NCBI GenBank assembly: GCA_030998015.1
Contig: JARWMV010000004.1
Location: 310,001 to 374,000 of the forward strand
Source: Ceratorhiza oryzae-sativae
Lineage: Eukaryota > Basidiomycota > Agaricomycetes > Cantharellales > Ceratobasidiaceae
Length of the DNA stretch: 64,000 nucleotides
Direction of reading: 5' to 3'
Shown here piece after piece: positions 3,896-64,000 of the stretch. The notes under the pieces are model-generated. The model was not told the DNA's origin and made no database searches. It was given only the letters and a program-made list of their open reading frames with translations. A program made the position numbers and the translations under genes. Numbering within the stretch: the first letter of the stretch is position 1; each line of letters opens with the position of its first letter.

Positions 3896-3936
3896 AATTC
3901 AAACCTCTAGAAGTTCAGGAGGATCCAGATGAGCCA

Positions 3937-7979: not shown

Positions 7980-8017
7980 TTAATTCCCAGCCTTCTGAAT
8001 CTAACGAGACAGAGGAC

Positions 8018-11000: not shown

Positions 11001-12606
11001 TAAGGTAAGAAACAAAGTATATAAAGCTAATGTCTCTCTTGCTACATCAGGTTTGAATGAGCTACACATCAGTATTAATGAATCTGAAGTTAATCGCTTT
11101 TATGAAGCATACACTAATGATCCCCATTTTGCTGATGTACTCAAGAAGCTGCAAGGTGAGTATGATCATCTAAATCCACCCTACAAACAATACAGGATTG
11201 GAGAAAATGGTCTTATTTACTTTTGCAGAGATGACAATTACAAGCTGTGTGTCCCTAAAGACTTACAGAAGGAAGTAGTAGCTGAAATACATGACTCTCT
11301 TCAAGAAGGAGCTCATGCTGGCTACCATAGGACCTACAACAAAGTAGCTTCTACCTACTACTGGCCTAAGATGGTACAAGTCATTAAGGAATATGTGCGC
11401 ACTTGTGATATTTGTCAAAAGGCTAAGCCTAAAAGACATGGACAAAGAGGTTTTCTTCAATCTATTCCAATTCCTAGTCAGCCTTTTGAAGTAGTAACCA
11501 TGGATTTTATAATGGATCTTCCTCCTAGCAATGGATTTAATGCCATACTAACTATAGTTGATAAATTGACTAAGTATGCACACTTTATCCCTTGCAATAC
11601 TTCTATCAATGAGGAAGAGACTGCCAAACTATTCCATGCGCATATATGGACCAAGTATGGTCTTCCAAGACAGGTTATTACTGACAGAGACTCTAGATGG
11701 ACAGGAGCCTTTTGGGAACACTTAACCTCTTTGGTTGGCATTCAGAGATGCTTACTACAGCTTATCACCCACAAGCTGATGGACAGAGTGAGATTATGAA
11801 CCAAACCTTAGAGATTGCCTTAAGAGCTTTTGTCTTTCCTTCAATGGACAATTGGAGTGACCTCCTAAATGATTTTAGCTTTGCTTACAACACCATGGAG
11901 CATACATCTACAGGATTTACACCTTCTTATCTTCTTTTAGGATTTGAACCACTTCGACCCTCAGATTTACTTACTTCTACTGGTAAAGCTTTAGCCAGAC
12001 CCTCTGTAGAAGATCCTAAAGCTGTGAACTTCAATGAGATGATGAAAGCTATTCGCTCTCAAGCTCAGGATGCCTTGAAATTGGCTCAGGTTCACATGGA
12101 GGATCAATACAACAAGAACCATAGTTATCTTGATCTACAGGAAGGAGATTTGGTCATGCTGAATCCACATTCCCTGAACCTGCTGAGAAATCAGAAGGGA
12201 AAAGGAAGGAAACTCCAGATGAAGTATGATGGTCCCTTTGAAGTTTTAGAGAAGCTTTCAGATGTAACTTATCGCATCAAGATTCCAGCCAGCTACAAGA
12301 TTCACCCTGTGATTAATATAGCTCATCTGGAACCTTATCATAGAGATAAAGATGGTACAGACTGTCCCAAGAAACATCTGAATAGATCTGACTTTGACAA
12401 GGAACCTGAATGGGAAGTGGAAGAGATTCTGGATGAAAAGATGATCAAGAAAGGACAGAGAAAACAGCGTTGATATCTTACAAGATTTCTGGGTTATCCA
12501 CCTGAATGGGATGAATGGTTATCCAGGCAGCAGTTGACAAACGCTCCCAGGATACTCAAGGAATGGGAACTTAAGCAACGCCTCAAGACATCTAAGAAGT
12601 CCTAAC
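8018..12606 (+). pseudogene. Pol polyprotein, element A (PR-RT-RH-IN-chromodomain)
   Basis: The aspartic protease has DSGSD at about 8282. The reverse transcriptase spans about 9400-10130 with the catalytic box YIDD (9821-9832). RNase H starts near 10262 (YTDACD). Integrase follows, with a zinc-binding N-terminus (CDICQ, about 11405), catalytic Asp residues in MDFIMD and ITDRDS, and a Glu in DGQSE near 11790. A GPF-type module follows, then a chromodomain (EWEVEEILDE near 12409 to APRILKEWE near 12575). The frame is broken by indels around 10545-10580, 10740-10760 and 11740-11760 and by a TGA at 12471-12473 inside the chromodomain. The YIDD box is intact. The chromodomain normally targets integration to marked chromatin (family knowledge). 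Confidence 0.92.
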
Positions 12607-35518: not shown

Positions 35519-36832
35519 ATGTCCACACCAAACCCCCCCCCTGCTTGGATTCAGTTTGATGCCACCCAGATTCAAGTACCCACCAATCCAGCTGACCTAT
35601 TAGCATTTACACACACAATCAAGGACACGCTGATTGCTATAAATAACAATCTTGCAGTATTCATCAATCAACAGTTGGCCGAACTTTCCACTATCAACAC
35701 CACTCTCCAGAACCACAATACAGGTGTATCTAACCTCAAAACAAATGTAGTCACACTCCAGGCTGCAGTCCAAGCACCTGGCACAAGCACCTCTGTTGTG
35801 TGTACTTGAGTGCCCAAGTTATCGGTGCCTGCTAAATTCAATGGCTCAGATAAAAACAAAGTGGTATCCTTCAGGGTCACAGTGGCCCATTATTTGTGGA
35901 CTTCTTATCCTTCTGCGACTGCTGATGAGCAGATCACCTACATCATCTCCTGCCTGGATGGCAAAGCCCATGAGTGGCTGGAACCCTATTTGGAGGACAA
36001 TGTTATTAATGGTAATCTGGTCACTTGGCTTCATAATGTCAATGACTTCTGGACCCAATTTAACACTTGCTGGAATGTCGCCAACAAGACTGAAAATTTC
36101 AGGGCGAAATTCAAGTCACTCAAACAAAAGAATTTGGTCCAAGAATATTTCAAGGACTTCCAGACATATTCCCAGGATCTCGGTTACAACGATGCATCTC
36201 TTCATGATCATTTCTACAATGGTCTTATGGTCAAAATCAAGGAGTTCCTTGTGGCCCAAGACTATGACCACATGGCTGCCAATGTCACTTTGCAAACTCT
36301 TGCAGACAAGGCACACAGAGTCAATCAGCGTATTGAGTTGTTCCAGGCCCAAAACCCATCCTCCAAATCTTCCTCTTCCAATGTGGCTAGCACCTCCACC
36401 AAAGCTTCCACCTTGCTGTCAGCAGCTCCTCCCAAAGGCCAGGCCAGGGAAAAGATGTCTGTTGGGGAAAAGGTGTACATGCTTGGTCTGGATGGTAAGG
36501 CTTGCAAAGGAACAATTTTGGCTATAAACCACAACACCAAAGGACAGTCAATTCCCACAATCAAATGGAATGATGGATCATCTGAAGAAACTACGTTTAA
36601 AAAAATCCAAAAAGATTCACATCCGATTGTCATCGCTCCCTCAGCTCCTACCCTGGCCAAAGGTTCTGGTCCTGGACCCATGGATCTAGATTCAGCTGGG
36701 AAAGGAAAAAAGCCTGTTATATGCAGCACTTGTGGTGGTCGTGGCCATTATTCCAGTGCTTGTCCCTCCAAACCCTATTCTGGGCAAGCTGCTTCCCTTT
36801 CTGGTGATGAGTGGGAAAACAAGGATGCTTGA
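35519..36832 (+). pseudogene. Gag, element B
   Basis: The ATG at 35519 begins MSTPNPPPAWIQFDATQIQV, with a coiled-coil-like N-terminus (IKDTLIAINNNLAVFINQQL). A single in-frame TGA at 35807-35809 is followed by a retrotransposon Gag domain (FRVTVAHYLWTSYPS and DGKAHEWLEPYLED). A small segment with an SH3/Tudor-like look follows (EKVYMLGLDGKACKGTILAI). The CX2CX4HX4C knuckle CSTCGGRGHYSSAC lies near 36722. The frame ends at TGA 36830-36832 and overlaps the pol frame by about 20 nt in another register. Without the one stop it would be about 437 residues, the usual size. Confidence 0.85.
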
Positions 36833-38469
36833 ACATTGATGGAGCAAATGTATCAAGCGAAACCAGTATGGACTTTGAAATATATGCTGTAGACAACGTG
36901 TCCCCTTTGAATATATATTTTGTCACATCTCAAGTCCTGTCTGCTCCAGAAAATAAAAGCATCAGCCATATGCAAACCATGCATGGTTGGGCAATGATTG
37001 ACTCAGGTGCATCCTCATGCTTTATACACCCACACCTAGTCAAACAATATCAAATACCCACTTACAAAAAGAAAAATCCAAAAAAATTAAAAGTTATTGA
37101 TGGTTGTGAAATCTCTTCTGGTATTGTTGATACAGAATGTGTTTTTATTCTAGAAATAGGTAGTCACAAAGAACAATTGATTTGTAATGTAGCAGACATA
37201 GGTAGACACACTTTAGTACTAGGAATGTTGTGGCTCAAATTACATAATCCAAATATTGACTGGCCAAATAAACATGTTACCTTTAACTCAAACTTTTGTA
37301 TAAAAAATTGTGTTCCTGCTTCTAATGTAGTTCTTGGCAATGTTGGTGGTGTCTTTGACCCATTCAATGAAAACCTAGGAGGTGTCGAGGCTTACCAACC
37401 TCTTGAAGGCATCCCTAGGGACCCTGGAGGTGTTGTGGTATCAAAACCACTTGAAGGCATCCCAGAGGAACTCCGAGACTATGCAGACATATTTTCTGAG
37501 TACAAAGTGACAGAGTTACCTCCTCACTGTCCATACAACCTTGAGATAGTCCTCAAGGATCAAAATGCACCAGTAAAAGGACTGGTATACCCCCTTCACC
37601 CTTTGGATGATGAGGAATTAAGGAGAATACTCAAAGAGCAGTTGGACAAAGGGTTGATCAGACCCTCCAAATCACAATACAGCTCCCCAGTAATCTTTGT
37701 TCCTAAAAAGAATGGCAAAAGAAGGATGTGTGTTGATTATTGTTTGCTCAATTCCAACACAGTACAAAACACATATCCCATACCTCTCATTTCCACCTTT
37801 GTAGAGAAATTGAGAGGAGCACATGTATTCACAACTCTGGACCTTAAATCTGGCTATAATCTGGTCAGAATTAAAGAAGGAGATGAATGGAAAACAGTGT
37901 TTAAAACAAAATATGGTCTATTCGAATACTTGGTCATGCCTTTTGGTCTTTGTAATGCTCCAGCCACCTTCCAGAACTTCATGAACAAGATCTTCAGGGA
38001 TTTGCTAGATGTGTCAGTCATAGTATACCTTGACGACATACTTACATTTTCTAAAAACCCTGAGGATCACACGAAGCATGTTCAGGAGGTGTTATCCCGA
38101 CTTAGGAAACACCAGCTATATTGCAACCTGGAAAAATGTGTCTTCAACACTTCTGAAGTGGAATACCTAGGCATAATTGCCAATGGGGAAGGAGTCAAAA
38201 CAGACCCTAAAAAGGTCACGGAAGCAGTTAATTGGGAAACACCACATACCATAAAGGAAGTGCAGGAAGCACTAGGGTTTTTCAACTACTATCACTGCTT
38301 CATAGAGGACTTCGCAGGACAAGCTTGGCCTATGTACCAGCTCTTGCGTAAAGATGTCCCTTGGCGATGGGGAAAGAATGAGGAAGCATCTTTCCAAATT
38401 CTGAAAAAAGCACTAGTCGAATCTCCTGTCTTAATCCAACCAGACGTCACAAAGGAATTCATACTGGAA
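36811..38469 (+). pseudogene. Pol 5' part, element B (PR, RT, start of RNase H)
   Basis: This open frame overlaps the end of gag. The protease active site reads IDSGASSCFIHP (about 36998-37033) and the later LVLGMLWL flap-like motif near 37214. Reverse transcriptase spans about 37610-38250, with MPFGLCNAPATFQ and the catalytic YLDD near 38026-38037. The connection domain and the start of RNase H end with KEFILE at 38469. There MITE-1 is inserted, duplicating TACTGGAA. Subtracting 1448 bp puts the downstream sequence in the same frame, beginning [11 protein letters not shown]. No stop occurs within this part. Confidence 0.9.
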
Positions 38470-39909: not shown

Positions 39910-41807
39910 TACTGGAATGTGATGCATCCGACTTTGCCACTGGAGCTATTCTCAACCAGTATGGCAAAGATGGTAAAATACATCCAGTAGCCTTCTATTC
40001 CAAAACTCTATCACCAGCCAAACGAAACTATGATATACATGATAAAGAATTACTGGCTATGATATGAGCATTCAAAGAATGGCGTCACTTGCTTGAAGGA
40101 TCTGAAATCCCTGTCTTGGTACTCTAAGACCACAAAAATCTAGAGTTCTTCCAGACAAAAAGGTACTTAAACTGGAGACAAGCAAGGTGGATGGGCTTCC
40201 TGGCTGACTACAATTACAGAATCAAGTACAGAAAAGGGGCACAAAATGGAAAAGCTGATATACTATCTTGACAAGAATCACTCCGGAGAGAAGCAGCTAA
40301 AGAGGGCAGTGAAACCCTGCTGCTTATCAGCCCCAAGCTTTTCATTTTGGCAATTCTCACCGACCATTCCCTCAATGATCTAATCAGGGATGCGTTACCA
40401 GATGATAAGACTGTATCAAAGATTCTAAAGTCCCTCAAGGAAAACATTCCAGTTAAAGGCTGGCGTCTAGAAGATGACTTGTTGTACTACCACAACCACA
40501 TATATGTACCAAACAAGTCAGAAATCAGACAAGTAGTCATAGAAAGCCAGCATGACAATCCTGCAGCAGGGCATCCAGGGCATTTCAGGACACTAGATCT
40601 CCTATCTCGAGATTACTATTGGTCCAGAATGAAAAAATATGTTGTTAATTATATTCAGGCATGCAACTCATGTATCCAGAACAAGCATTCAAACCAAGCC
40701 CCTTGTGGTCTCCTACAACCCATAGACTTACCAAATAAACCCTGGGAGGAAATCACCTACAACTTGATCACTGGATTACCAATGTCAGAAGGATACAATG
40801 CAATACTCACAGTGGTGGACCAATTATCAAAAATGGTACACTTTATCCCCACACACTTGGGAGCCACTGCAGTAGACATTGCACACCTATTTGTAAACTT
40901 TGTCTGGAAATTACACAGATTACCCCAAAAAACCATATCTGACTGAGGCCCCAACTTCAATGCCAAATTCCTTCACCAATTGTACAAACCCCTAAACATT
41001 GAACCACATTACTCTACAGCATACAGACCACAGGTTGACAGGCAAAGTGAAAGACTTAACCAATTTGTCAAAATATATCTTCATCACTACATAAATCATA
41101 GACAGACAGATTGGGTAGCATCATTGCCTATGGCGGAATTCACATATAATAATGGGAAGCACTCAGGATCAAGCCACTTGCTGTTCTTTACCTGCTATGG
41201 TTACAACCCAGACTTCACTGTGGGTAATACCAAAGAAAGCCAGGTACCTGCCACCAATGAATATGCTGAACACCTCAAGGAAATCCAAGAAGAGGCCAAG
41301 GCTGCTCTAACGATTGCCAATCGAACATACTCCAAATATTATAATCAGAAGCATTGTGAAGCACCAAAGATCAAAGTCGGATCAAAGGTCTTTGTAGATG
41401 GCTCAAATATCAAAACCATACGCCCTTCTAAGAAATTGGATAACAGGTGTTTTGGACCATACAAAGTACTGGAACAAATTGGAAAACATACTTTCAAACT
41501 GGAATTACCCAAATCCATGAAGGTTCATCTGGTATTCCACACTTCACTCCTGTTCCCAAAACCAATAGATGACTATAACTGGCAACCTGTACTTGTTCCA
41601 CCAGTGGTCACTCCTGATGGTGAAGAAGAATTTGAAGTTGAAGAAATCCTGGACTATCAAAAGGTTGGAAGAAGATTGGAGTATTACGTCAAGTGGAAAG
41701 GCTATGGGCCAGAAGAAAACCTATGGTTACCTAAAGCTGAACTCAAGAATGCACCCGAACAAGTCAAAGAATTCCACCAACTCCATCCCAATGCACTTGG
41801 ACCTTGA
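39910..41807 (+). pseudogene. Pol 3' part, element B (RNase H, integrase, chromodomain)
   Basis: RNase H starts [11 protein letters not shown] (39918) and includes DKELLAM and DHKN. In-frame stops fall near 40066 (TGA), 40126 (TAA) and 40269 (TGA). Integrase follows: a zinc-binding region (HPGHFRTLDLLSRDYYW, then CNSCIQNKH), DDE residues in ITGLP-preceding and ISD-type motifs with a TGA at 40944-40946, and RQSERLNQF. A GPY-type module (NRCFGPYKVLEQIGKHTFKL) comes next. The chromodomain (EEFEVEEILDYQKVGRRLEY to EQVKEFHQLHP, about 41625-41793) is intact. Two of the stops are TGA where CGA is common in relatives, consistent with CpG deamination. The frame ends at 41805-41807. Confidence 0.9.
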
Positions 41808-48615: not shown

Positions 48616-48971
48616 TGTTGAAACCCCTCCATCTGCTTGTCTCTATTGATTCTTTAGGTAGTGGCTATGTTGTCAGTGGTAATTTGCAGTGTATGTTGAT
48701 AGTATTTATGTAGTATGTATGGATGATCCCTGTGGTTGACAAGATAAAGCAAGCTGGGGTCCACAGTCTTGCTTTTGATGAGTTATATACCCTTCAAGGT
48801 ATGAGTCAGACTGTTCCACAGTCTGCAGTATGTTATGGGTCATGTGTGGTGTAAACAAGCATTAAGTAAGATGCTCTTAGGGTTGTTGCAGCTTTGAATC
48901 TTATAAAGCCATGCAAGGTCCAAGGGTCATGTGATTTAAGCACTGAGGTTACATGATAAGTTGTTCCTTGC

Positions 48972-51223: not shown

Positions 51224-52360
51224 ACATGTGCAAGACAGCCAGCTGGCAGACACTGATACAAGGCCTTGAAGGGCTGGGTAATGAGATGGCACAGCTGAAC
51301 ATGGACTCAGAGCCTGTATCATCAGAAGGGGACAGTAATACAGACCAGAAGCATGTTGGCTCAACACCAGGCACATAAAATAGTAGTGACACAAGTGGTC
51401 AATATTAAGCTAATGACATTCTACTTGGCAGGGACTCTACCCAAGATTATATCTCCAACAAAGACCACTCTCTCTCCTTTCCAGGTAGAAGGATTGCCAA
51501 ATATTGAATCAGTGCTCCCAGCCTGCAATCAGGTTGCTGAGTCAAGTGATACAGCTCAAGAGAAGGAGACACTATGCCTGGGTGAATGAACTCACTATAT
51601 TGTTGATAGATCAACTCATTTGCACCTATTTAGATATCTGGCAACAGCTGGATGAGCCATTGCCCCTTGACTTTGCAGTGCAACTCCAATATCTTCATGA
51701 TGTGGCAGAGTGTCTCCCACCCAGCACTCCTGGGGGAAATGCTGCCAGCCCCTTTGGAGTATTCAAGAGCAACTTAGAGGACCTGATAATTAATTGGACC
51801 TTTACAGATATCTGGAGCTGTCTATTGCCTATCTTGAACAGTGCCATACCAGAAGAAGCTATTGCAAAGCAGATATCAAAGTTTATAACTGTTGGTAGAT
51901 GTGGCTTGATGGGCATTTATAATACCTTCCTGAACATGATGAACCATGGAGTTGATCATAAAGTGTTGCAAGGGGCCCTCGAGAAAGTATCTGAAGCAGC
52001 ATTGACAAGGTCAGATGAAGATATAGAGAGCCATTGAATTAGAATCACAGCTTTGTTGATAGGGTTTGCTGAAAGCAAAAGCCAACCATTCAATCAGCCA
52101 AGGAAAAGATTGTACACCTATGGACCAAGGATTGGTTAATCTATCTGAGGATGACAACCCTTCAAACGATCCTTCAGATCCAGTGAGTAAGAAACATGAG
52201 AAATTATGGGATTTTAAGCTGTCATCAGATGACAAGAGACAAGCAAAGCATGATGCAAGAAGCTGGAGTGCTGCCAGAAGGAAGTAAGTGTGTGCAAAAG
52301 CCAAAGAAGCATTTTGAACAATAGTGTATGGGAGAGATATCCTGAGGAGAATGCCATGAA
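51224..52360 (+). pseudogene. Unknown host-like gene fragment
   Basis: Several stretches read as protein. KTASWQTLIQGLEGLGNEMA lies just after the TSD. A 177-codon frame at 51504-52037 includes LDFAVQLQYLHDVAECLPPS and LLPILNSAIPEEAIAKQISK. A Ser/Asp/Lys-rich end (52141-52287) reads SEDDNPSNDPSDPVSKKHEK. It is broken at 52360 by element C. No family recognised. With the fragments at 48439-48615 and 63067-63640 it may be one disrupted gene. Confidence 0.4.
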
Positions 52361-53012
52361 TGTTATGACCTGTCAAACAGACATAACAGAGTAACCGAAT
52401 ATTTTTATGGATTTATGGCATTTTTCCTAAGTGGAACAAGCCATAAACAAGGTCATGTGACCTTGGCACTTAACCAGTGCTTACAGTGGTTACCCTGAAC
52501 TCACTCCAGCATTTCTCTCCATTGTTACTTGGAGCAAGGAGCAAGTTGCCACATGATCTTGGCACTTAACCAGTGCTTACAGTGGTTACCTTGAACTCAC
52601 TCCAGCATTTCTCTCCCTTCTTACTTGGAGTGAGGAGTGAGTTGTCATGTGATCTCAGCACTTATGGCAGGATCACATGACCTCAGCGCTTACCCCTCAG
52701 ACCTCATGCAGCTCTATAAGATTTGGAGCCACACAAACTTAAGATAAATAATTACCTAACCCATAGTACTGTATATAACCTGTACCTACTGCGGATTGTG
52801 CTTAAATAATACATCTGCAGCCACCGCAACCACAGGCATAAATAAGAAGGATAAAGCAAGACTGGACACCTCAGCTTGCTTTATCTCATCAACCACCATA
52901 GACCATAGCAAACACTGTAACTAGAACACTCAATACATACCACATAACATCAAACTGTCAACGCAGCCACTACTTAAGTGCTTTGCAAGGAAGCATCCAG
53001 AGGGTCACAACA
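52361..53012 (+). mobile_element. 5' LTR-C (652 bp)
   Basis: It starts TGTTATGACCTGTC and ends GGTCACAACA. It has two tandem copies of a 96-bp unit (units start near 52463 and 52559), while the 3' LTR has one, which accounts exactly for the length difference. The 5' half contains several TCAYRTGA-type sites (for example GGTCATGTGACC near 52451). CATAAATAAG at 52837 replaces the TATATAAG of the 3' LTR. Confidence 0.92.
52873..52884 (+). promoter_or_regulatory. Predicted self-primer in LTR-C
   Basis: AGCTTGCTTTAT is the exact complement of the PBS at 53015-53026. In the 3' LTR the same stretch (62927-62938) lies 34 nt after TATATAAG (62893-62900), so it should form the RNA 5' end. Confidence 0.65.
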
Positions 53013-53014
53013 TT

Positions 53015-53026
53015 ATAAAGCAAGCT
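53015..53026 (+). promoter_or_regulatory. Self-primer-type PBS, element C
   Basis: ATAAAGCAAGCT begins 2 nt after the LTR end, the same spacing as in element B, and is perfectly complementary to 52873-52884. No tRNA-type TGG is present. Confidence 0.7.
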
Positions 53027-53132
53027 CTTAACTTAACTAGTGGCAAACATAAGTATACTACACAGATACTAAGGGCTGAGTACACAAGAAACCAGCTAAC
53101 TCCTGTGATACATAAGAGAACACAAAGAAACT

Positions 53133-55499
53133 ATGTCACAGAGACCACAAACTCAATCTCAAAGCAGAGTGGCAAATAGTAGACCACAATCACCCAAACC
53201 TGTTACTCACCCAGAGGCTGAAGGTAACCCAGATGAAACCCTCCAAGGAATGCCAGGGGGGTTGCCATAAAATCCACAACCAGTGTCTCAACCTAACCCC
53301 ACTTGGCCCCCCATCCTGGGAGGGCAAATAGGGGGAATACCACTCCACAACCCTCAACTGCCAATTCTCCTGATAAATCCAGACCCAGAAGATATCTCAA
53401 ATCCAGAGAGGGATGAGGTAGAAGATATGACCTGGACCATATACAAACAAGGCATAGCCTTGGCAGAAGAGGCAAGGACACAACCCCAGCCAGGTTCTGG
53501 AGCCATAACCACTGCCAACCCTATTCACACCATTGCCACTGCCATCAGGGCAGGGCTCAAGGAACTTAGAGACAATAACCATAGGGAACTAGAAAAGGCA
53601 ATCACAAGTATAAATCAGTGTCAAATATCACTAACACAGCAAGAAGGAAACGTGGACTGGACGGTAAGATCAATGGAAACATCCAACAAAAATGTCCTCT
53701 ATGTGGCAAAGAACCAGGATGACCTAAAAGCAGAAATGGGGAACCTGATAAAAGAATTAAAGGACAACTCCATGGGAGTAAACCGGGTAATGGGAATGCA
53801 AGAGTGAAAGCTTGAAAGCTTAGAGAAGAAAACTGAAAACACAGGGGAGATCCTGACCACACTAGAACAATGGGTAACTGATCTAGGAAATGAGCTCCAG
53901 AAAACAACTGAAGCAGGAAGTGTCAGAGCTACAACCAGGAAGGATGACCCAAACATCTAAGGGGATGATGGGAGACCTATAGACAACAATGCCAGAGGTC
54001 TAAGTCACAACATCAAGGGGGAGACATGCAACAGAGAGTAAGGGTGCAATAAGATGCAAGGATGTAGAAGTATGTGCACTTGTCCTTAAGAGGACTGGGC
54101 AGGGACTATGGACTAAGAGTCACACAGGTAGTAGAGGGGATATGACAGGAGGTTGAGTTCTGAGGCTTAAGGCTCTCAGACTCTCCCTTATATATTCATA
54201 TGATGAGCTATATCAAATACACATATGGTGCAAGACGACTATTGTATGATGTAAGAATGGTGCCATGTAACAGAATATTCCAGAAGGTACAAACAGAACG
54301 TAAACAACAACAAGGTCACATGATCAGGTAAGTAATTCTATGCATATATCCAATTAAACAGGACTTGCCCAAAAATATGAGAAAGAGAGATGTATAAAAT
54401 ATAGGAAAATCATAATAAAATCTGTGTCACAGTCTAGGCCATGACAGGAAGGCTGAAGGAAAGGACAGAAGAGACCAGGGGAAGAACTAGGGTGGTCATA
54501 GGAAGCCCCTCACAATCCCCCTCAGCCTCCCCAGTATGAACACCCTTTCTGGGAAGAACCTTCCAGGCCGAGTCCACAATAAGACCCCAAACAGAACCTC
54601 CATCCCAAGCAAACCAACCTACCCTTGCTGCAAACCACACTCCTAAGGAGGCATGACTAGGGAGACCCAGCAAATTCAATGGGAAAAAGGGGAAGCAAGC
54701 AGAGAACTTCATAATTGGCATGGAACTTTTCTTTGCTGACTATGATGAATCAGCCTTTGACAACCAAAAAAAGATATCTGCTTTGTTAATGAACATGGAG
54801 GACAGGGAAGCAGCAAACTGGGCACAACCTTACCACCAGAAATTACTAGCAGGCAAACACACAGGGATCCTTGCATCCTGGAAGGATTTCAGGAAGGGAT
54901 TCCTGGATGCCTTTAATGACCCAGTCATAAAGGAAAAGACCATCCGGAAGCTAAAGAAATTAACACAAACCAAGAGTGCATTGGATTATGCTACCCAATT
55001 CCAGACCCTAATCCAAGAGGTAGACTGGAACCAGGAAGCCCTCAAGGACCAATTCAGGGAAGGGTTAAAACCCGAAGTACGACAAGAGATCTTAAGGATT
55101 GAAGTACTGGCAAATGAGGCTGAAGGACCATCATATACCCTAGATCAACTAATTGACTTTGCCTGCAAAATGGATGACATGCAGTTTGCAAACCAGAAAA
55201 TGAATGCAAGGACCAGTAACTCATCAAATTCAACCTGGGCACCAGCAAAATACAAACAAGGGGGGAACAAGCCTTCAGGGACCAGTGGCAAACAGGGGAA
55301 TACCCAAACTAACAACGTGGTAAGAATACCAAACAGTGACAAAGACAGGCAAAGGAAAGAAGGACTCTGTATCAAATGCAGTAAATCAGTGCATGTCCTG
55401 AAGGACTGCCAAGGCCAGTGGACCTACAACAAAGCAAAGATACAAGGGAATGCCAGCAGACAAGTTGAAGAAGAAAGCAGCTCCAAGTCAGAAAACTAA
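53133..55499 (+). pseudogene. Gag, element C (split by solo LTR-B)
   Basis: The ATG at 53133 begins MSQRPQTQSQSRVANSRPQS. The frame has a TAA at 53268-53270 and a TGA at 53805-53807. The solo LTR-B at 53921-54446 interrupts it; it and one TSD copy add 531 bp, a multiple of three, so the register is kept. Further stops fall near 54537 and 54657. The Gag domain lies at about 54720-55160 (MELFFADYDESAFDNQKKIS; NMEDREAANWAQPYHQ). The knuckle CIKCSKSVHVLKDC near 55368 keeps CX2CX4HX4C spacing, with Ser for the usual Gly. The frame ends TAA 55497-55499. Confidence 0.85.
53921..54446 (-). mobile_element. Solo LTR-B (minus) in Gag of element C
   Basis: A 526-bp reverse LTR-B, TGTCAGAGCTACAACC...GGCCATGACA, with the perfect TSD GGAAG (53916-53920 and 54447-54451). 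It shows that family B was active after element C inserted. Confidence 0.93.
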
Positions 55500-55516
55500 T
55501 TGGTCCTACCACTTCC

Positions 55517-58500
55517 ATGTTGGAGGACCCTGATATAACCCCTACTGCAGATGTATGTTACCTCAAGAAATCTAGTAATCAATCAATAATATACACTACA
55601 GTAGAGGGAATCATGGAACCAGCAAAGACACTGATTGACTCAGGATCTTCAACCAACTTCATTGATAAGGCCTATTCAAGGGAAAAAGGGATCCAGACCA
55701 CTCCCCTCAAACACAAGAAATCAATCATGGCCATCAATGGAAATGAAATCAACAATGCCATAGAAGAAAGGGCAGAACTAAATATTGAAGTGGAAGGAAA
55801 GACACTGAAATGCTCCCTTTATGTGATGACCCTAGGCAACACAGACATAGTCCTAGGGAAAGAATGGCTTGAGGAAGCAGAACCTATCATAGATTGGAAA
55901 GACCTTACCATCTCATAGCCAGACAAAATCAAGGCAAGGGCAGCAAGTGAAAGTCTACAAATCCCAGAAGAATTTAGGGATTTTGAAGACCTGTTTGGGG
56001 AAGAAGGTTTCTGAGGACTTCCGCCCCACTGAGGAAACCTGGACTTCAAAATGGACCTAATCAAGGGAGCAGAGCTGCCAAAGTCTGCAAAGAGGTACAG
56101 TATGTTGCCAGCAGAAACAAAGGCACTCAGGGAGTACCTAGAGGAGGAACTAAGAAACAGAAAAATAAGGCCCAGCCAGTCAGTTGTAGCTGCACCCTGT
56201 TTCTACATAAACAAAGCAGATGGAGGGCTTAGGTTGGTAGTTGACTACCATAAGATGAATGACATCACCAAGCCAGACAGGTTTCCACTTCCAATTCAAA
56301 TAGAATTGATTGAGAGACTGAAGGACACAACCATCTATTCAAAAATGGATGTTCAATGGGGGTTCAACAATATCAGGGTAAAAGAGGGAGACAAATGGAA
56401 AACAGCTTTCAGGACAGGAGAAGGCCAGTTTGAATGCTTGGTCATGCCCTTTGGAGTAAAAGAAGGACCAAGAACCTTTACAAGGTTCATGATGGAAAAG
56501 TTCCATGACATAATAGATGATTAAGTGGTAATCTACATGGACAATGTACTAGTGTTTTCCAGAAACAGGGAAGAACATGTACAACATGTCAGGGAAGTGT
56601 TAAGAAGAATGAGGGAAAACCACCTCTTCCTCAAACCACACAAGTGTCAGTTCTTTGTGAAGGAGGTAAGCTTCATTGGAATCATCATATCCCCAGAAGG
56701 GATATCAATGGAGAAGGAAAAGGTAAAGGCAGTCCTGGAATGGCCAGAACCTAAAACAGTAAAATAAGTCCAAGCATTCCTAGGCTTTGTGGGGTTCTAT
56801 AGAAGGTGGATAGAGAAGTTTAGCACCTTAGCCAAACCCCTCACAGATCTCACTCAAGAGGATGTCAAATTCCTGTGGGAGAGAAAACAACAAGAAGCAT
56901 TTGAAGCTATTAAAGAAGCAGTAGCAAGAGAACCAGTCTTAATCCACCCAAACCCAAACAAACCATACATACTGGAAACAGATGCCTCAGGAGTGGCCAT
57001 GGGGGCAGTACTAAGCCAAAAGGGTGATGACAACCGATTGCATCCAATTGCCTTCCTATCGAAGAGCTTCACCCCACCAGAGAAAAATTATGACACCTAT
57101 GACAAGGAGTTGCTTGCAATCGCTAGGTCCTTAGAGCACTGGATGTTATACCTAGAAGGGACAGAAGAACCTATTGTGATATATACTGACCATAGGAACC
57201 TCCAGTACTGGCAAAATGCCCAGATGTGGAATGGAAGGCACACCAGATGGTATCTTACTCTGGCACCCTTCAATTTTCAGATTGTGTATAGACCAGGGAA
57301 ACTCTCACAGAAGCCAGATGCTCTTTCCAGAAGGAGCAACCATGGGGACACCCCCATGGAACCACAGATCATGATTCCAGAAGAAAGGTTCATAGGTTTC
57401 AAGGCAGAGGTACAGGGGAACTTCTGGGAGGAGCTTAAAGAAGCTCAGGAAGAAGACGAATCTATCAGATCCTTAAGGCTGAGTGTGGCAAATAAAGAAC
57501 AACTACCACCCTCAGTACAGAAGGAATTAAGATAGTATGAAATGAAGGAGGGCCTATTAAGGTATGATGATAGGCTCTACATCCCAGATGACAAGGACTT
57601 GAGGTTGAGCCTCCTTAAGGAGTGCCATGATGCCCCTGTGGCAGGTCATCAGGGACAAGCCCAAACACTAGAATTACTATCAAGGGATTACTACTGGCCA
57701 GGAATGAAGGCCCAAGTAAACCAATATGTGGAATCTTGTGAAACATGTCAAAGGAGCAAAGGACACAAACAAGGGGCTTCCCTGAAGCCCTTATCAATCC
57801 TGTGGAAACCATGGGCAGATGTTGCATATGATTTCATTGTCAAATTACCAGTCTCAAAAGGGTACAACAGCATCTTGACAGTTGTAGATTGCTTCTCCCA
57901 GCAGGCCCATTTTGTACCATGTCTGGAGAGCACCAATGCAGAAGAACTGGCAGAAATATTCATAAGGGAGGTATGGAGACATTGTGGGACACCAGAAACC
58001 ACTGTCTCAGACCAAGGGCCAACCGTTAACAGCCAATTCCTAAAGGCCCTATACAAGGGAATTGGGACAAAGCCCAGATTCTCCACCACCTTCCATTCAG
58101 ATATAGATGGACTGTCAGAAAGAACAAATCAATGGGTAGAAGGATTCTTAAGAAGCTTCTGCAATTATAGACAAGATGATTGGGTAAAATGGTTACCCAT
58201 TGCTGAATTCTGCCATAACAACCATGTAAACACTACAACAGGACAAACCCCATTTGAAACAGTATATGGAAAAAACCCAAGATGGGTTGTCTGAGAGGGA
58301 GAAGAACCATCTGAGGCACCTGCTGCAGACAGCATGCATAATCAAATGGAAAAGGTATGGGATGAGGCAAGGGCTTCAATGGAATTACACCAACAAATGG
58401 AAAAGAAAGGGAAGGAATTCAAGGTAGGAGACAAGGTTTGGCTGCTCCTAACAAACCTCTTGTCCAAGAGACCCTCCAAGAAATTGGACAACCAAAAAGG

Positions 58501-58929
58501 GGCCCTTTTGAAATCACAGAGAAGATCTTGTCCCATGCATATCACCTGGACCTATGTAAAACCATACACGTACACAACGTATTCCATGTAAATCTCCTCT
58601 CGCCATTCACAGAAGATAAAGACTTCCAAAGAAGGCAGGCCAAACCACCACCAATCATAACAGAAGAAGGAGAGGAGGAGTATGAGGTGGACCACATTGC
58701 AAATTATGAATGGTGGAATGGTGAGCTGTTTTACCAAATCAGATGGAAGGGCTACAACCTAATAGAAGACACAATGGAATGTGCCAGCAAGTTTGCTGAC
58801 ATGAAAGAGGTTCTAAATGACTTGCAAAGGTGCTTACCAGATGTACCAATGCCAGTCAAGACGAGTCAACACTCAGGTGACTTGAAAGGCAGGCCAAAGA
58901 GAACCAAACAAGGATCTGGAAAGCTTTAA
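55517..58929 (+). pseudogene. Pol, element C (PR-RT-RH-IN-chromodomain), dead RT
   Basis: The protease reads TLIDSGSSTNFID (about 55630). Reverse transcriptase spans about 56120-56700 with MPFGVKEGPRTFTR. The catalytic box is YMDN (56534-56545) instead of YxDD, which should abolish polymerase activity. RNase H contains ETDASGVAMGAVL (about 56977), DKELLAI and TDHRN. Integrase has CETCQRSKG (about 57739), a YDFIVKLP Asp, a VSDQGP Asp and a DGLSERTNQ Glu. The chromodomain lies at about 58676-58830 (EYEVDHIANYEWW; WKGYNLIEDTMECASKF). Stops occur near 55916, 56010, 56031, 56522, 56765, 57533 and 58292, and a frameshift near 58490. Confidence 0.92.
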
Positions 58930-59170
58930 AAGAGCCATCCAGGATACCCAAGAAAGGCCCAAGCCCGCTCTACCACTGCACTTGCACCACGATACACCTG
59001 CAAAGTCTCAAAACATTCCTTTCACCACTTGCCAAATTGCACATCCCAACCATTACATACCACTTGTTGAAAATCAGGTGGCCCCATTTTGGCAGCCACC
59101 CACCACTAGGTGGCCAGCACCTTACCCCAGCAGGGAAAATCACCCTAAACTAGGGACATATTGCTCTAGC
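58930..59170 (+). other. Spacer between pol and accessory ORF1
   Basis: About 240 bp after the pol stop. It reads open in the ORF1 frame (Pro/His-rich, from about 58985) but has no ATG in that frame until 59171. It may be leader sequence for the accessory block. Confidence 0.35.
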
Positions 59171-59836
59171 ATGGAAGATGCCTGGAGGTACACTGAGTGA
59201 CTGTTGCCAGGGGCTAACCTAGTGTACATCCCAAAGAAGTTAAGGGATGAAAAGAACTGGATTGACAATGACAAGTACCCAGATCCCAGGTTGGGGGTCC
59301 TGACATGGCATGGAAGCCAGAAGCCAACAACAAGACACGCCTTGCTAAGAACACCAATGTATGTCATTGATGATATTGTGGGACCAATGGTCAATGTGGT
59401 GGCTGTGGCAGCAAGACAACGGAGGAGGGCCTCAGGCCAAATAGCAGACAGGGGGGATTGGGAGGTGGAGTGCTGGACCAAGGCATTGTTTGAAGAATGG
59501 AAGTTGACACCAGCCGCACTGTATGTGGGACTGCTTGAGGCAACTACCACTGATGAAATGTTTACTGCTATCAGGACAAAGCAGGCAAACATGAGCGACT
59601 TCCGAAATTGGGGGAAGGTGCACCCAAACAAAAACACCAATTATGACACAGACATGACAAGCCTTACATTGAGCCTAGAATCACTGGTTGTTGCTGAGGA
59701 AGAAGCAAAGCCAGCAATAAAGGAACCCACCCCAGACCCAGCTGTCAAAGGAGCCAAACAGGACTGGGACCAGTGGGAAAACACACTTGTCGAAGCTCTG
59801 GAGGAGGTGCCACTGTTGGAACCAGCCCCCATATGA
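59171..59836 (+). pseudogene. Element C accessory ORF1, unknown
   Basis: The ATG at 59171 is followed after nine codons by TGA at 59198-59200. The frame then stays open to 59834-59836 (about 212 codons). Visible stretches include NLVYIPKKLRDEKNWIDNDK, RHALLRTPMYVIDDIVGPMV and DWEVECWTKALFEEWKLTPA, and an acidic Pro/Glu-rich tail. It looks like a folded domain with a disordered C-terminus. No family recognised. It converges on antisense ORF2 with a 141-bp AT-rich gap (59837-59977), which may hold both 3' ends. Confidence 0.45.
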
Positions 59837-59977
59837 CCACTTTGCCTCTCACGGATTCTTTCTCAAATGTATAAGAGTTTTTATTTTTACATATCAAACC
59901 TAATACATTTTACTCTCTATATATGTTTGCCCTTGAGGGGCTGGGTATAGGGCTTCTTGCCCTTTTTATCCTTCTTA

Positions 59978-60451
59978 TCAGTCCAAACAACTGACTGGGT
60001 GGTGGGCCACAACCAAGGGGCCTCCCCCCCCCAGGAAGTCAGCCATGTAATTCTGGAAACACCCAGAGCCAGATGCTGCAAAGGGTGAAGCCTCATCAAA
60101 CAAGGGGGCAGAGCCCTCCTTGAAGAATTCAGCAAGAGCAGCCTGGTGTGACTGCTCTTCAAAGGACTTGTAGTCCTGATCAACAAGCACCCAGACGCAC
60201 TCAAGGGTGGCCTCATGGGCCCGACCATCAAGGAGTGTGGTCTCTTCTACAGAAGCAAGTAAGTAATGTGAGACCAACAAAGAGGGGGCATATGTACCTG
60301 GCACCCCAAGGAAGAACCAGTCCCCAACACCTCCATAGAAGTCATCAAGGGAGGCGTTGCACATGGTGTCACAGTAGGCACAGTACTCCCCCTCAGGGAG
60401 AGACCAGCAGGTGCAGTCAAGGGGATTGTAGTTGAGGGTAGTAACATGCAT
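59978..60451 (-). CDS. Element C accessory ORF2, antisense, unknown
   Basis: An intact 157-codon minus-strand frame from ATG 60451 to TAG 59978. It is opposite in direction to gag, pol and Rep. The N-terminal third is Cys-rich (LDCTCWSLPEGEYCAYCDTM, then C) with pairs that could bind zinc. A hydrophobic and acidic middle follows (DWFFLGVPGTYAPSLLVSHY), and the C-terminus is Gly/Pro-rich. It is neither basic nor Arg-rich as a capsid N-terminus would be. It shares a 419-bp upstream region with Rep, so the two are divergently arranged. Its uninterrupted frame in a decayed element is notable. Confidence 0.5.
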   Translation of the reverse strand: MHVTTLNYNPLDCTCWSLPEGEYCAYCDTMCNASLDDFYGGVGDWFFLGVPGTYAPSLLVSHYLLASVEETTLLDGRAHEATLECVWVLVDQDYKSFEEQSHQAALAEFFKEGSAPLFDEASPFAASGSGCFQNYMADFLGGGGPLVVAHHPVSCLD

Positions 60452-60870
60452 AGTAAAGATGAGATGAGGAAGGGAAACAGCAAAACCACAGACATTAAAA
60501 AATCACAGTGCAACACAATAACTTGCACAAACATCAAAACAAAGCCTGGTCAGGTGACACAAACAGACATGTGACCATCTGCCAGAAAACAAACAACAAA
60601 GCACTGAAATCACATGACCTAGCCTAGTCACATGAATATGCACTATCCCCTAACTACCGGAGGGGTCAGAGAGGGGGCACCGACTGAAGTGGAGGAGTGG
60701 AGGCCCTGAGCATAGTGAGGAATAAGGCTGACATGGGGGAATGCAGGAAGGGCACCCCTTGGAGATGTGTCATAACCAGCACAAGCCTACATCAGGGAAC
60801 CATGTGACCACAACAACCAGAGAAGGTATATCTAGGGGATGCCCTTGGGGGTAAAAGGGGCTATCATCTC
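60452..60870. promoter_or_regulatory. Divergent intergenic region between ORF2 and Rep
   Basis: 419 bp with at least five E-box-like words: CAGGTG near 60555, CATGTG near 60570, CACATG near 60612 and 60631, and CATGTG near 60803. Two occur as TCACATGA/TCACATGAC, similar to sites in LTR-B and LTR-C. A short CCCC/GGGG hairpin with loop TAACTACCGGA lies at about 60650-60668. The canonical geminivirus nonanucleotide is not present. GGTATATCT near 60825 may serve as the Rep TATA box. Confidence 0.4.
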
Positions 60871-62200
60871 ATGCCCTCCCCACAAGACGCATCTACCTCT
60901 AAAAACACCAATGATGCTAAGCAAAGATGGCTTGAATGTGGGAACACCCCAGCCAAACAAATCAAGCACAGGGCAGAGGTTGGCATCACCATTGCTGGTG
61001 CCCTCAGAATCAAGCTGAGCCCCCTCACCTGCTTCTACATGGCTTACGCCAATGGATCACAGGTCTGTAGAGCTGACTGAAACCACACCAGCCCCCTGAT
61101 TCTGCATCCAGACCAGGGCAGTGCTGCTGACCTGGTCAAAGCTACATGATCAGCCCTCAAGTGGGCTTGCTGCCCAATATGAGGTGTTCTGCTGCCACCA
61201 GCCCAATCACTGGGCAACTTTAGCTGTGGTCGAATGGCACAACTTGGAGGAGCCAAACTACAACCCAACCCGGCCCCTGCATGTCCACATCCTCTCCATC
61301 AGTCAGGAACAGAAGGGTGGGTGGAACACCCAGAATGTGGGGTTCTGGGACTTCGAGGGGCAACACCCCAACATATGGCCCAAAGACCTCAAGGATGGGC
61401 CAGGAGGCAACCCAGCAAGGGACACCTTCAACTATCTCTGGAAGGACATCAGAGCTAACAGTGAGGAGATAGAGGATTTGATGGTGGGGGACCTGACCTT
61501 GGAAAGGTTGGAGGAGATCTTGGTGAAGGGAAAGGGTGGAAAACAGTCAAGGATGGAGGCAGACTTGGAGGATGGGACAGAGATTGTTGCCTCGGCGATG
61601 AAACAGGAGTACTATCAGGCGTTCAAGCACCTCTGCCCCCTCCAGATGGTGACAACATGGAACTCAGTACAAGTGTATGCCAAGTACACATACAAGGAAG
61701 ACCAGGGTTGCATGCCTGCAATCCCTGTGGAGGTAGAGGTCCTGGAAGACTGGGAGCCCATCAACTGAGCAGACAGATGGTTTGCTGAGGAAGTTGAGAA
61801 GAGGGGAAGAGGGGTGCCCCATTGCATCCTGGCAATAGAAGGAGAGACTGGAATGGGGAAAACAGCATACATACGATCCAAGGGCTGCCACAGCTGGATG
61901 TGCAATGTGTGGAACATGGGGAACTTGTTGGAAGACGCCAACATTTGGATCCTGGACAACATGGTCTGGTCAAATGGGAAGTACTCACTCAAGGCCCTGA
62001 GCCAGTACAAGGTGGACTTCACAGGCAGGTACGTGCACATGAAATTGATGAAGGTACGCCTGACAGTTATTCTGGGTAATAGCCAGTCAGCAATCATGAA
62101 GTGTTGGTCAGACATAGAGGGGGAAGAGGGGGACTTATGGGTATCAAAAAACATAGAATGGGTGTACTCAGGAGGAAAACCATTCTTTGTATTCCCATAG
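60871..62200 (+). pseudogene. Geminivirus/CRESS-type Rep (HUH endonuclease + SF3 helicase)
   Basis: An ATG at 60871 opens a 5' exon. A candidate 49-nt intron (61063-61111, GTCTGT...CCAG) leads in phase to the main frame, which is readable from 61112 to TAG 62198-62200. In order are a motif I-like LLTWSK (about 61124-61141), the metal-binding HVH (61280-61288), a geminivirus-like FWDFEGQHPNI stretch (about 61346) and the catalytic-tyrosine motif YLWKD (61433-61447). After a TGA at 61766-61768 come Walker A GETGMGKT (61841-61864), a Walker B-like WILDN (about 61945) and motif C VILGNS (about 62066). In ssDNA viruses this protein nicks the origin and unwinds DNA for rolling-circle replication. 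The single stop separates nuclease from helicase. Size and motif order match a full-length Rep of the geminivirus/genomovirus type. Confidence 0.82.
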
Positions 62201-62335
62201 AATAATTTACTGTATTGTACAACTTCTGCTATGCCCATCCAAACAGTTGGGGCATTCTGAGAAGAAGCAAATGACTCCTCACCCCTGGATAACCTCCACA
62301 ACAAAGAAAAGAAAAACAATCTCATGTAACATAGA

Positions 62336-62426
62336 GGTTAAGGGGTCTAGCCTGACTCAGCCTCACCTCATTGAACAATACTGAATCAGCCAAAAGGTCA
62401 TTGGTTCAAGTCCAGCACCCTTAACC
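62336..62426 (+). other. tRNA-like hairpin upstream of the polypurine tract
   Basis: GGTTAAGGGGT and ACCCTTAACC can form a 10-bp terminal stem with one bulge. GGTTCAAGTCC (62403-62413) matches the tRNA B-box consensus. However, three extra bases between the T-arm position and the closing stem and the lack of a normal D-loop argue against a functional tRNA. It may be a tRNA-derived relic or a structured RNA element. Confidence 0.3.
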
Positions 62427-62495
62427 TCCTTGGTGCATGAGATTCCTTTTGCATAAAGGATCTAAATCATGTCTCAAGGTCCCCCAAGACATGTC

Positions 62496-62510
62496 CAAAG
62501 GGGGGGATAA
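62496..62510 (+). promoter_or_regulatory. Polypurine tract, element C
   Basis: CAAAGGGGGGGATAA lies immediately before the 3' LTR, as expected for the plus-strand primer. Confidence 0.8.
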
Positions 62511-63066
62511 TGTTATGACCTGTCAAACAGACATAACAGAGTAACCAAATATTTTTACAGATTTATGGCATTTTTCCTAAGTGGAACAAGCCATAAACAA
62601 GGTCACATGACCTTGGTGCTTAACCAGTGCTTACAGTGGTTACCCTGAACTCACTCCAGCATTTCTCTCCCTTGTTACTTGGAGCGAGGAGCAAGTTGTC
62701 ACATGATCTTGGCGCTTATGGCAGGATCACATGACCTCAGCGCTTACCCCTTGGACCTTGTGTGGCTCTATAAGATTTGGAGCCACACAAACTTAAGATA
62801 AACAATTACCTAACCCATAGTACTGTATATAACCTGTACCTACTGTGGATTGTGCTTAAATAATACATCTGCAGCCACTGCAGCCACAGGCATATATAAG
62901 AAGGATAAAGCAAGACTGGACACCTCAGCTTGCTTTATGTTGTCAACCACCATAGACCATAGCAAACACTGTAACTAGAACACTCAATACATACTGCATA
63001 ACATCAAACTGTCAACGCAGCCACTACTTAAGTGCTTTGCAAGGAAGCATCCAGAGGGTCACAACA
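62511..63066 (+). mobile_element. 3' LTR-C (556 bp)
   Basis: It starts TGTTATGACC and ends GGTCACAACA. It has one copy of the 96-bp unit, TATATAAG at 62893-62900 and the primer stretch AGCTTGCTTTAT at 62927-62938. It is otherwise highly similar to the 5' LTR, with most differences C/T or G/A. Confidence 0.92.
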
Positions 63067-63640
63067 ATAAAGTTGAATTCACCATTCCAGTTGTGAGGAT
63101 AACCATTACTTTTCATGGGAGAGTCAGCAGGTGGCTTTAGAAACATGGTCTGAAAATGCAAAGAAAATCCTTGTGACCCAGGGGACAATAGCAGCAACAT
63201 GCCCAGAGCTCAACCCCAAACTTTGTGAACACATCCACCCTCTTCATGAGCATGTTTGGCACTTCTAAAAGACATTCCCCACCTCCAAGAAGAAAGAATG
63301 TGATGCCACAAATCTGGCAGCAGATGCTGACTGTGAAGGTGCTCGTCATGTAAATGAATGTGTTTACCATCTTCACAAATGTGTTCACCATCTTCATGAA
63401 CACATTGACCAGCTTCATGAACATATAGGATAACCAAAATGTTGCCTTTTTCCTGACTTACACTTGCTTACAAAACTGATGCAGCATGTGACCTTTCTCA
63501 TGGTTTCTGAGATTGGACTTGCCAGGTTGGGTGAACAAGTAGACTTGAGCACTTGGCTGTATAATGAAAGTTGTAGCCAGACATTAAATGTATATATAAG
63601 TAGAGTATTGTACAATTTGGAGTGATGCATGAGGACATGT
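63067..63640 (+). pseudogene. Unknown host-like fragment with 21-bp repeats
   Basis: It begins after the element C TSD and reads ESQQVALETWSENAKKILVT (from about 63121) and later CVYHLHKCVHHLHEHIDQLH (about 63358-63417) with a stop and frame change between. The second part comes from three 21-bp tandem units (about 63357-63420) that give a heptad-like HLHE pattern. The minus strand is also open here. It may continue the gene fragment at 51224-52360. Confidence 0.35.
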
Positions 63641-63767
63641 GTGTCACTTGCCAAAAAGGTATGCTGCATCAATTATGTAACTTGGATATCATGCATGGGA
63701 ACAGCCCATGTATGTGCCCACTCTCCCCCTTGCCCACAACAATTTTCAACATCAAACTGACTTGAAT

Positions 63768-64000
63768 ATGCCTGGGAGACACATTGATGAGCCTACCAAG
63801 GCATTGAGTTGCAATATGCAAGCTTGGGGGCATAGTACATACAAGATTGGGGCCCAGTTCCACATTAACCCCACTACTGTTAGCTGTATTGCAAAAGAGC
63901 CCAGAAAAACACAAAGCTCCAGCTCAAAGAAGCCTAAAGTGGGTTTCACACACAAACTTACCCCTGCTGATGCTCATTTCACTGCCCTCTTGCTTGCTCA
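63768..64000 (+). CDS. Tc1/mariner-type transposase N-terminus, cut by window end
   Basis: The ATG at 63768 opens a frame with no stop to the window edge (at least 77 codons). It begins MPGRHIDEPTKALSCNMQAW and has a helix-turn-helix-like segment HSTYKIGAQFHINPTTVSCI, then a basic linker and KLTPADAHFTALLLA. This is the usual N-terminal DNA-binding layout of fungal Tc1/mariner transposases. The DDE domain would lie beyond 64000. Terminal repeats were not identified upstream. Confidence 0.55.
   Translation, partial: MPGRHIDEPTKALSCNMQAWGHSTYKIGAQFHINPTTVSCIAKEPRKTQSSSSKKPKVGFTHKLTPADAHFTALLLA

What the first reader, a model, noticed from the sequence alone, without database searches (positions are those of the whole stretch)
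60871..62200. Geminivirus/CRESS-type Rep gene inside the LTR boundaries of a chromovirus
The sequence shows HUH-nuclease motifs (HVH, YLWKD), a geminivirus-like FWDFEGQHPNI stretch, Walker A GETGMGKT and a motif C-like VILGNS, in the right order and at full-length size. They lie between a gypsy integrase-chromodomain gene and its polypurine tract and 3' LTR. A rolling-circle Rep linked to a retroelement would be a chimera of two replication systems. It has one in-frame stop and a candidate 49-nt intron, which suggest residence in a nuclear genome for some time. Rep-like sequences integrated in fungal genomes are known, but carriage within an LTR element is what deserves checking.
Basis: partly seen in the sequence, partly recalled or inferred. 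Interest (0 to 1): 0.92.

Follow-up and report, generated by a model that had tools for sequence, protein, structure and literature searches.

The report
Rolling-circle Rep gene carried by retrotransposon
A family of fungal LTR retrotransposons carries, in copy after copy and under selection, a gene that looks like the replication enzyme of small circular DNA viruses, joining two unrelated ways of copying DNA in one mobile element.

Summary
The window ends in a gypsy chromovirus (LTRs 52361-53012, 62511-63066). Between integrase-chromodomain and polypurine tract lie three extra genes: X (+), Y (antisense) and a CRESS/geminivirus-like Rep (60914-62200). Rep shows rolling-circle motifs I-III, a GRS-like stretch and Walker A, B, C in order, in one frame with three TGA stops; no intron is needed. 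In this genome 81 of 112 close integrase matches have Rep 3.3-5.0 kb downstream on the same strand, against 1 of 112 in each control. Six of 20 fetched copies keep the frame open. dN/dS is about 0.06-0.08 between two subfamilies that both carry X, Y and Rep. All 40 named relatives are Ceratobasidium 'hypothetical proteins'. An 8-bp palindrome is packed into LTRs and the Y/Rep intergenic region and nearly absent from coding DNA. Weak points: no profile match passes a curated cut-off (Gemini_AL1_M sub-threshold in 8 of 26), structure prediction was inconclusive, no nonanucleotide origin was found, and Rep and integrase distances correlate weakly. I found no report of a Rep kept as a gene of an LTR element. 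Most likely it is a captured, selected nickase-helicase acting on the element's own DNA; that mechanism is inferred.

The parts
52356..52360 (.). left copy of 5-bp target site duplication (ATGAA); right copy 63067-63071 (ATAAA), one mismatch
52361..53012 (+). 5' LTR (TG...CA); holds palindromes TCACRTGA/TCATGTGA at 52453, 52645, 52673
53015..53026 (+). candidate self-primer binding site, complementary to LTR bases 52873-52884
54657..55499 (+). gag (Retrotrans_gag, Ty3_capsid)
55469..55918 (+). aspartic protease
56033..57535 (+). reverse transcriptase and RNase H, in three open pieces; the RT part was read by eye, the RNase H piece (56768-57535) matched Pfam
57536..58929 (+). integrase with SH3_Tf2-1 and sub-threshold chromodomain, in pieces
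58886..59836 (+). gene X; open copies have a 318-codon frame here, the window copy has one stop
59978..60451 (-). gene Y, antisense, divergent from Rep; GT-AG intron 60247-60297 (51 nt) inferred from frame changes in other copies
60452..60913 (.). Y/Rep intergenic region: palindromes at 60610 and 60628, short hairpin 60647-60665, TATA-like word about 60827 (by eye)
60914..62200 (+). Rep-like gene, 428 codons plus stop, three in-frame TGA stops in this copy
61280..61288 (+). HUH motif (motif II)
61340..61375 (+). GRS-like stretch
61433..61444 (+). motif III, Tyr-x-x-Lys
61841..61864 (+). Walker A
62320..62442 (+). conserved 123-nt block with a B-box-like word and a long end stem
62497..62508 (+). 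polypurine tract
62511..63066 (+). 3' LTR; palindromes at 62603, 62699, 62727

Best explanation
SHOWN: recurrent placement between integrase and 3' LTR, open frames in several copies, low dN/dS, retained catalytic motifs, a palindrome shared by LTR and Y/Rep intergenic region. INFERRED: Rep and Y are made from the intergenic region as a divergent pair; Rep binds the palindromes and nicks or unwinds the element's own DNA (extrachromosomal linear or circular cDNA), raising the number of DNA copies or their integration. My odds: Rep homology 0.85; a selected function of the element 0.9; a catalytic role on element DNA 0.45; a regulatory role only 0.3.
For: 81 of 112 integrase matches at 80% identity or more have Rep downstream, median 3568 bp, controls 1 of 112 and 1 of 112. 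Integrase, X, Y, Rep and LTR occur in that order in 14 of 20 fetched copies. A second subfamily (integrase 71%) carries X (39-49%), Y (41-59%) and Rep (69-72% over residues 86-428 in L031 and L032; in pieces in L034): 3 of the 6 fetched loci with a 65-71% integrase that are not cut by a contig end. dN/dS 0.06-0.08 between subfamilies in the 6 of 9 comparisons with a finite dS; within the family median 0.219 of 45 pairs (range 0.081-0.768), integrase 0.27 of 10 pairs. HUH His 23 of 23 and 22 of 23, Tyr 24 of 25, motif III Lys 24 of 25, Walker A Lys 23 of 24, motif C Asn 22 of 22, gapped rows set aside. Motif order against shuffles. Gemini_AL1_M in 8 of 26 members, best E 0.001, spanning nearly the whole profile where shown. 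Relatives: 61 proteins; the 40 with organism names are all Ceratobasidium. Palindromes: 37 in 3.68 kb of intergenic region, 31 in 3.98 kb of 3' LTR, 1 in 49.3 kb of coding DNA, in 7 loci chosen from the 20 fetched.
Against: No match over a curated cut-off in Pfam or NCBIfam and none in PHROGs; Gemini_AL1 only once, E 0.23; no PDB relative by sequence. Structure models were too poor to use (pLDDT 33 and 54), and no Rep appears among the rows printed by the fold searches. No canonical nonanucleotide in the window element, and the short hairpin of the main subfamily is not clearly kept in the second. Rep and integrase distances correlate weakly (r 0.31, P 0.07, 15 copies) although integrase and X correlate at 0.87. 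The GRS-like stretch matches one printed genomovirus motif at 7 of 16 (35 of 20,000 shuffles reach that) but the other one tested at only 5 of 16 (7325 of 20,000).
Confidence: 0.5

Rival explanations
1. Rep is a real CRESS-type Rep, but it is kept as a DNA-binding regulator: it binds the palindromes to tune LTR and Rep/Y transcription or to counter silencing, and its enzyme activities matter little.
For: The palindrome is shared by LTR and the Y/Rep intergenic region and nearly absent from coding DNA, and is present in both places in the second subfamily. No origin was found. LTR pairs differ mostly by transitions (23 to 3, 27 to 4), consistent with methylation of the element.
Against: Catalytic His, Tyr, Lys and Walker residues are almost invariant, more than DNA binding alone should need. 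The palindrome could equally be a host bHLH site.
Confidence: 0.3
2. The protein is not a Rep: an unrelated P-loop protein whose N-terminal half resembles HUH motifs by chance or convergence.
For: No profile match over a cut-off; structure models and fold searches give no support; no relative outside one tight family at E 10 or less.
Against: Ordered motif set in 0 of 200,000 shuffles; sub-threshold Gemini_AL1_M in 8 of 26, spanning nearly the whole profile where shown; motif residues conserved across species.
Confidence: 0.13
3. An endogenous viral Rep that happened to land in one retroelement copy and decays there.
For: The window copy itself has three stops. [quoted passage not shown]
Against: 81 integrase copies with the same layout, open frames in 6 of 20 fetched copies, dN/dS far below 1, a second subfamily with the module.
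Confidence: 0.02
4. The Rep module is a separate mobile element (such as a geminivirus-like DNA transposon) that repeatedly inserts at this site.
For: 35 of 150 Rep matches lack a listed integrase or X upstream; Rep distances are only weakly congruent with integrase.
Against: Integrase-Rep distance is nearly constant; Rep-LTR distance and the 123-nt block are nearly constant in copies that have them; no inverted repeat of 20 nt or more was found in the window element. The integrase, X and Rep searches were capped, so missing neighbours are an upper bound.
Confidence: 0.05

Closest known systems
Geminivirus-like transposon of Tuber melanosporum and other fungal Rep-like sequences (Liu et al. 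2011, PMC3198968; abstract and passages seen)
   Same: multi-copy fungal transposable element (42 Rep genes or remnants) with a geminivirus-like Rep frame; [quoted passage not shown]
   Different: the Tuber element has 37-bp terminal inverted repeats and transposase frames, and its Rep frame is interrupted; 'retrotrans' and 'LTR' do not occur in the held main text. Here Rep sits in a fixed place in an LTR retrotransposon family, with open frames and measured purifying selection
Rep of Geminiviridae/Genomoviridae (motif definitions from passages of PMC11052389 and PMC8621823)
   Same: motifs I-III, GRS-like stretch, Walker A, B and C in order; a divergent gene beside Rep across an intergenic region
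   Different: motif I has Trp for Tyr and lacks the final Gln; no nonanucleotide found; no capsid gene recognised; no curated profile match
Tf1/sushi-type self-priming chromoviruses (recalled)
   Same: gag-pol order, SH3_Tf2-1 and weak chromodomain matches, self-complementary primer site
   Different: extra X, Y and Rep genes and a 123-nt tRNA-like block
LTR elements with captured extra frames, e.g. of bdelloid rotifers (PMC5408684, search listing only)
   Same: additional frames in LTR retrotransposons
   Different: the listing names no Rep; the paper was not opened
Cressvirus fragments joined to retrotransposon-like sequence in sea anemone contigs (PMC11071296, passages seen)
   Same: CRESS Rep sequence next to abundant retrotransposon-like sequence
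   Different: described there as rearranged integrations, not as a Rep gene kept in a fixed place of an LTR element; details not seen

Membership tests
LTR retrotransposon, gypsy chromovirus | paired LTRs with TG...CA, target duplication, polypurine tract | tested here: met
   one mismatch in the duplication
LTR retrotransposon, gypsy chromovirus | gag, protease, RNase H, integrase in order | tested here: met
   the RT piece was not scanned
LTR retrotransposon, gypsy chromovirus | chromodomain after the integrase | tested here: inconclusive
   Chromo E 0.0024, 18.2 bits under the cut-off of 25.1
LTR retrotransposon, gypsy chromovirus | self-primed reverse transcription (Tf1/sushi group) | tested here: inconclusive
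   12-nt complementarity present; mechanism not tested
CRESS/geminivirus-like Rep | motif I, HUH and YxxK in order | tested here: met
   motif I is uuTW, not uuTY
CRESS/geminivirus-like Rep | Walker A, B, C of SF3 helicase | tested here: met
   strict regex fits 4 of 6 own copies and 12 of 28 relatives
CRESS/geminivirus-like Rep | match to Gemini_AL1 or Gemini_AL1_M over the curated cut-off | tested here: not met
   best Gemini_AL1_M shown 19.5 bits against 24
CRESS/geminivirus-like Rep | HUH fold | tested here: inconclusive
   model pLDDT 54
Geminiviridae/Genomoviridae replicon | stem-loop origin with nonanucleotide | tested here: not met
   window element searched with five patterns
Geminiviridae/Genomoviridae replicon | capsid gene | tested here: inconclusive
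   X and Y match no family over a cut-off

The most novel reading that the evidence does not exclude
A dual-replication mobile element: an LTR retrotransposon that copies itself through RNA and also amplifies or processes its extrachromosomal DNA with its own rolling-circle nickase-helicase, with LTR and Rep promoter wired together by a shared palindrome.
Probability: 0.33. Interest if true: 0.95.

Novelty: new variant of a known kind. Interest (0 to 1): 0.85.

Why it matters
Reverse-transcribing elements and rolling-circle ssDNA replicons are usually treated as separate worlds. A stable, selected union of both, in over 80 copies of one genome and with relatives of the Rep protein in other Ceratobasidium, would show that a Rep can be useful to a retrotransposon. 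It makes the question 'can an LTR element replicate as DNA?' testable with ordinary biochemistry. It would also explain a family of conserved proteins that is now named only 'hypothetical'.

Tried and rejected
Rejected: intron in Rep (continuous frame); late single insertion; an ordinary tRNA gene at 62320-62442 (ARAGORN 0 genes in the window and in 19 loci; Rfam on window 52000-64000 gave two matches below their gathering scores, neither at this place); CRESS nonanucleotide in the window element; a conserved hairpin as origin (main subfamily only).

Against my reading: distance correlations integrase-Rep r 0.31, P 0.07 (15 copies); RT-Rep 0.36, P 0.04 (13); X-Rep 0.45, P 0.0025 (17); against integrase-X 0.87 and RT-integrase 0.92. 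I read this as recombination between copies, which was not tested. Among farther integrases Rep is found in 6 of 18 (60-79%), 1 of 5 (50-59%) and 0 of 11 (40-49%; one of these has a Rep match 1.2 kb downstream, outside my range).

Literature: no paper on a Rep kept as a gene of an LTR retrotransposon was seen in the searches (open PMC library only; listings read). Passages of six papers were seen: PMC3198968 (also its abstract), PMC3248453, PMC6668415, PMC11052389, PMC8621823, PMC11071296. Figures and supplements were not seen.

Full report
What is there. The last 12 kb of the window is one LTR retrotransposon. Its LTRs are 52361-53012 and 62511-63066; 538 of 564 compared bases are identical (23 transitions, 3 transversions, K2P 0.048; a 97-base and a 2-base indel set aside), with TG...CA ends and a 5-bp duplication with one mismatch. 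Gag, protease, RNase H, integrase and SH3_Tf2-1 match Pfam in order, the chromodomain below its cut-off. A 12-nt stretch two bases after the 5' LTR is complementary to a stretch of the LTR that lies 34 bp below a TATA-like word in the copies measured, the arrangement of self-priming Tf1/sushi elements (recalled). Downstream of the chromodomain lie X (+), Y (-) and the Rep-like gene (+), then a 123-nt conserved block, a polypurine tract and the 3' LTR.

The Rep gene. In the window it runs from ATG 60914 to the stop at 62198-62200 in one frame with TGA stops at 61016, 61097 and 61766. The frame from that ATG is open over 428 codons in 6 of 20 fetched copies. No intron is needed. Published motif definitions (uuTYxQ, xHxHx, YxxK, GRS, GxxxxGKT, uuDDu, uxxN; passages of PMC11052389) are met in order except that motif I reads uuTW and lacks the Gln. 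Over 26 aligned members, chosen from the hits, the catalytic positions are nearly invariant: His 23 of 23 and 22 of 23, Tyr 24 of 25, Lys 24 of 25, Walker A Lys 23 of 24, motif C Asn 22 of 22, gapped rows set aside. The motif set in order was found in 0 of 200,000 shuffles and in 0 of 330 ORFs from unrelated contigs; the spacing ranges were mine, and the strict regex holds for 4 of 6 copies and 12 of 28 relatives. Gemini_AL1_M matches 8 of 26 members below its cut-off, the best with 19.5 of the 24 bits needed and covering profile positions 11-106 of 107. No family passes a cut-off, and structure prediction failed to reach useful confidence. So the Rep assignment is supported by motifs, not by a curated profile or a fold.

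It belongs to the element. The own genome (48.8 Mb, 253 contigs, unnamed) gave 150 scored Rep matches, the cap, and 126 X matches. Of 112 integrase matches at 80% identity or more, 81 have Rep 1.5-6 kb downstream on the same strand, median 3568 bp, range 3332-4957; 90 have X; 100 have either. Controls: Rep on the other strand 1 of 112, Rep upstream 1 of 112. Among 60-79% integrases 6 of 18 have Rep, among 50-59% 1 of 5, among 40-49% 0 of 11; caps make these lower bounds. Of 20 fetched copies, 14 show integrase, X, Y, Rep and LTR in that order, a fifteenth all but the LTR; the others are truncated or broken up by other elements. A second subfamily (L031, L032, L034; integrase 71%) carries X, Y and Rep as well, Rep 69-72% identical over residues 86-428 in L031 and L032 and in pieces in L034.

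It is selected. Between subfamilies Rep dN is 0.17-0.24 with dS near saturation, ratio 0.06-0.08 in the six of nine comparisons with a finite dS; within the family the median ratio is 0.219 over 45 pairs of 10 copies (range 0.081-0.768), against 0.27 for integrase (10 pairs) and 0.36 for X (10 pairs). The ten copies were chosen for an open stretch, and saturated dS makes the between-subfamily figure rough, but the direction is clear.

Who else has it. One cluster stands for 38 member sequences. The weakest of the 71 has E 1.4e-9 and nothing lies between that and E 10, so there is no sequence bridge to known Reps among the candidates scored. X has one relative, in Ceratobasidium AG-Ba. Whether those relatives also sit in LTR elements could not be tested here.

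Control region. The Y/Rep intergenic region and the 3' LTRs share an 8-bp palindrome (TCACRTGA or TCATGTGA): 37 in 3.68 kb and 31 in 3.98 kb, but 1 in 49.3 kb of coding sequence, in 7 loci that I chose from the 20 (L017, without a found LTR, included). In the window one more lies at 54316, between LTR and gag. It occurs in LTR and intergenic region of the second subfamily too. A TATA-like word lies about 87 bp above the Rep ATG (read by eye). Y shows a GT-AG interval of about 50 nt that restores its frame, on the antisense strand, where splicing of the element's sense RNA would not remove it (inference). I propose a divergent promoter for Y and Rep that shares its regulator with the LTR. The regulator may be Rep itself, as with geminivirus iterons (recalled), or a host bHLH protein.

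Mechanism. The near-invariance of both the nuclease and the ATPase residues argues that the enzyme is used. The most likely substrate is the element's own DNA outside the chromosome. A regulatory role alone is the main rival. No origin was recognised, which is the largest gap. The weak congruence of Rep and integrase distances (r 0.31, P 0.07) is most simply recombination between co-packaged copies but was not tested further.

Known or new. The nearest precedent is the geminivirus-like TIR transposon of Tuber melanosporum; [quoted passage not shown] A preprint notes cressvirus fragments joined to retrotransposon-like sequence in sea anemone contigs (PMC11071296, passages). I saw no report of a Rep kept as a gene of an LTR retrotransposon (searches named under Tried and rejected). 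I rate it a new variant of a known kind: both halves are known, their stable union is, as far as I could search, not.

Noticed in passing
62320-62442: A block of constant 122-123 nt with a Pol III B-box-like word and a long end stem lies between Rep and the polypurine tract in 28 of 37 held own-genome loci (five of them repeats of a place already counted), in both subfamilies. By eye one end-stem pair changes on both sides between subfamilies, but the T-arm-like stem is not kept in the second. ARAGORN and Rfam do not call it a tRNA.
   Followed up: partly
53015-53026 and 52873-52884: Self-complementary primer site of Tf1/sushi type; the same 12-nt word also occurs at 48744 in the window.
   Followed up: partly
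59978-60451 (-): Gene Y is antisense inside the retroelement, Cys-rich at its start, with a conserved short GT-AG interval.
   Followed up: partly
58886-59836 (+): Gene X, about 300 aa, matches no family over a cut-off and has one relative in the protein search, in Ceratobasidium AG-Ba.
   Followed up: partly
L025, L027 against other copies: Two forms of the Rep upstream region and 3' untranslated part exist, which together suggests recombination between copies.
   Followed up: partly
7967-10627, 11697-12470, 35810-38469, 40947-41804: Other long open frames; some read like further retroelements, by eye only.
   Followed up: no
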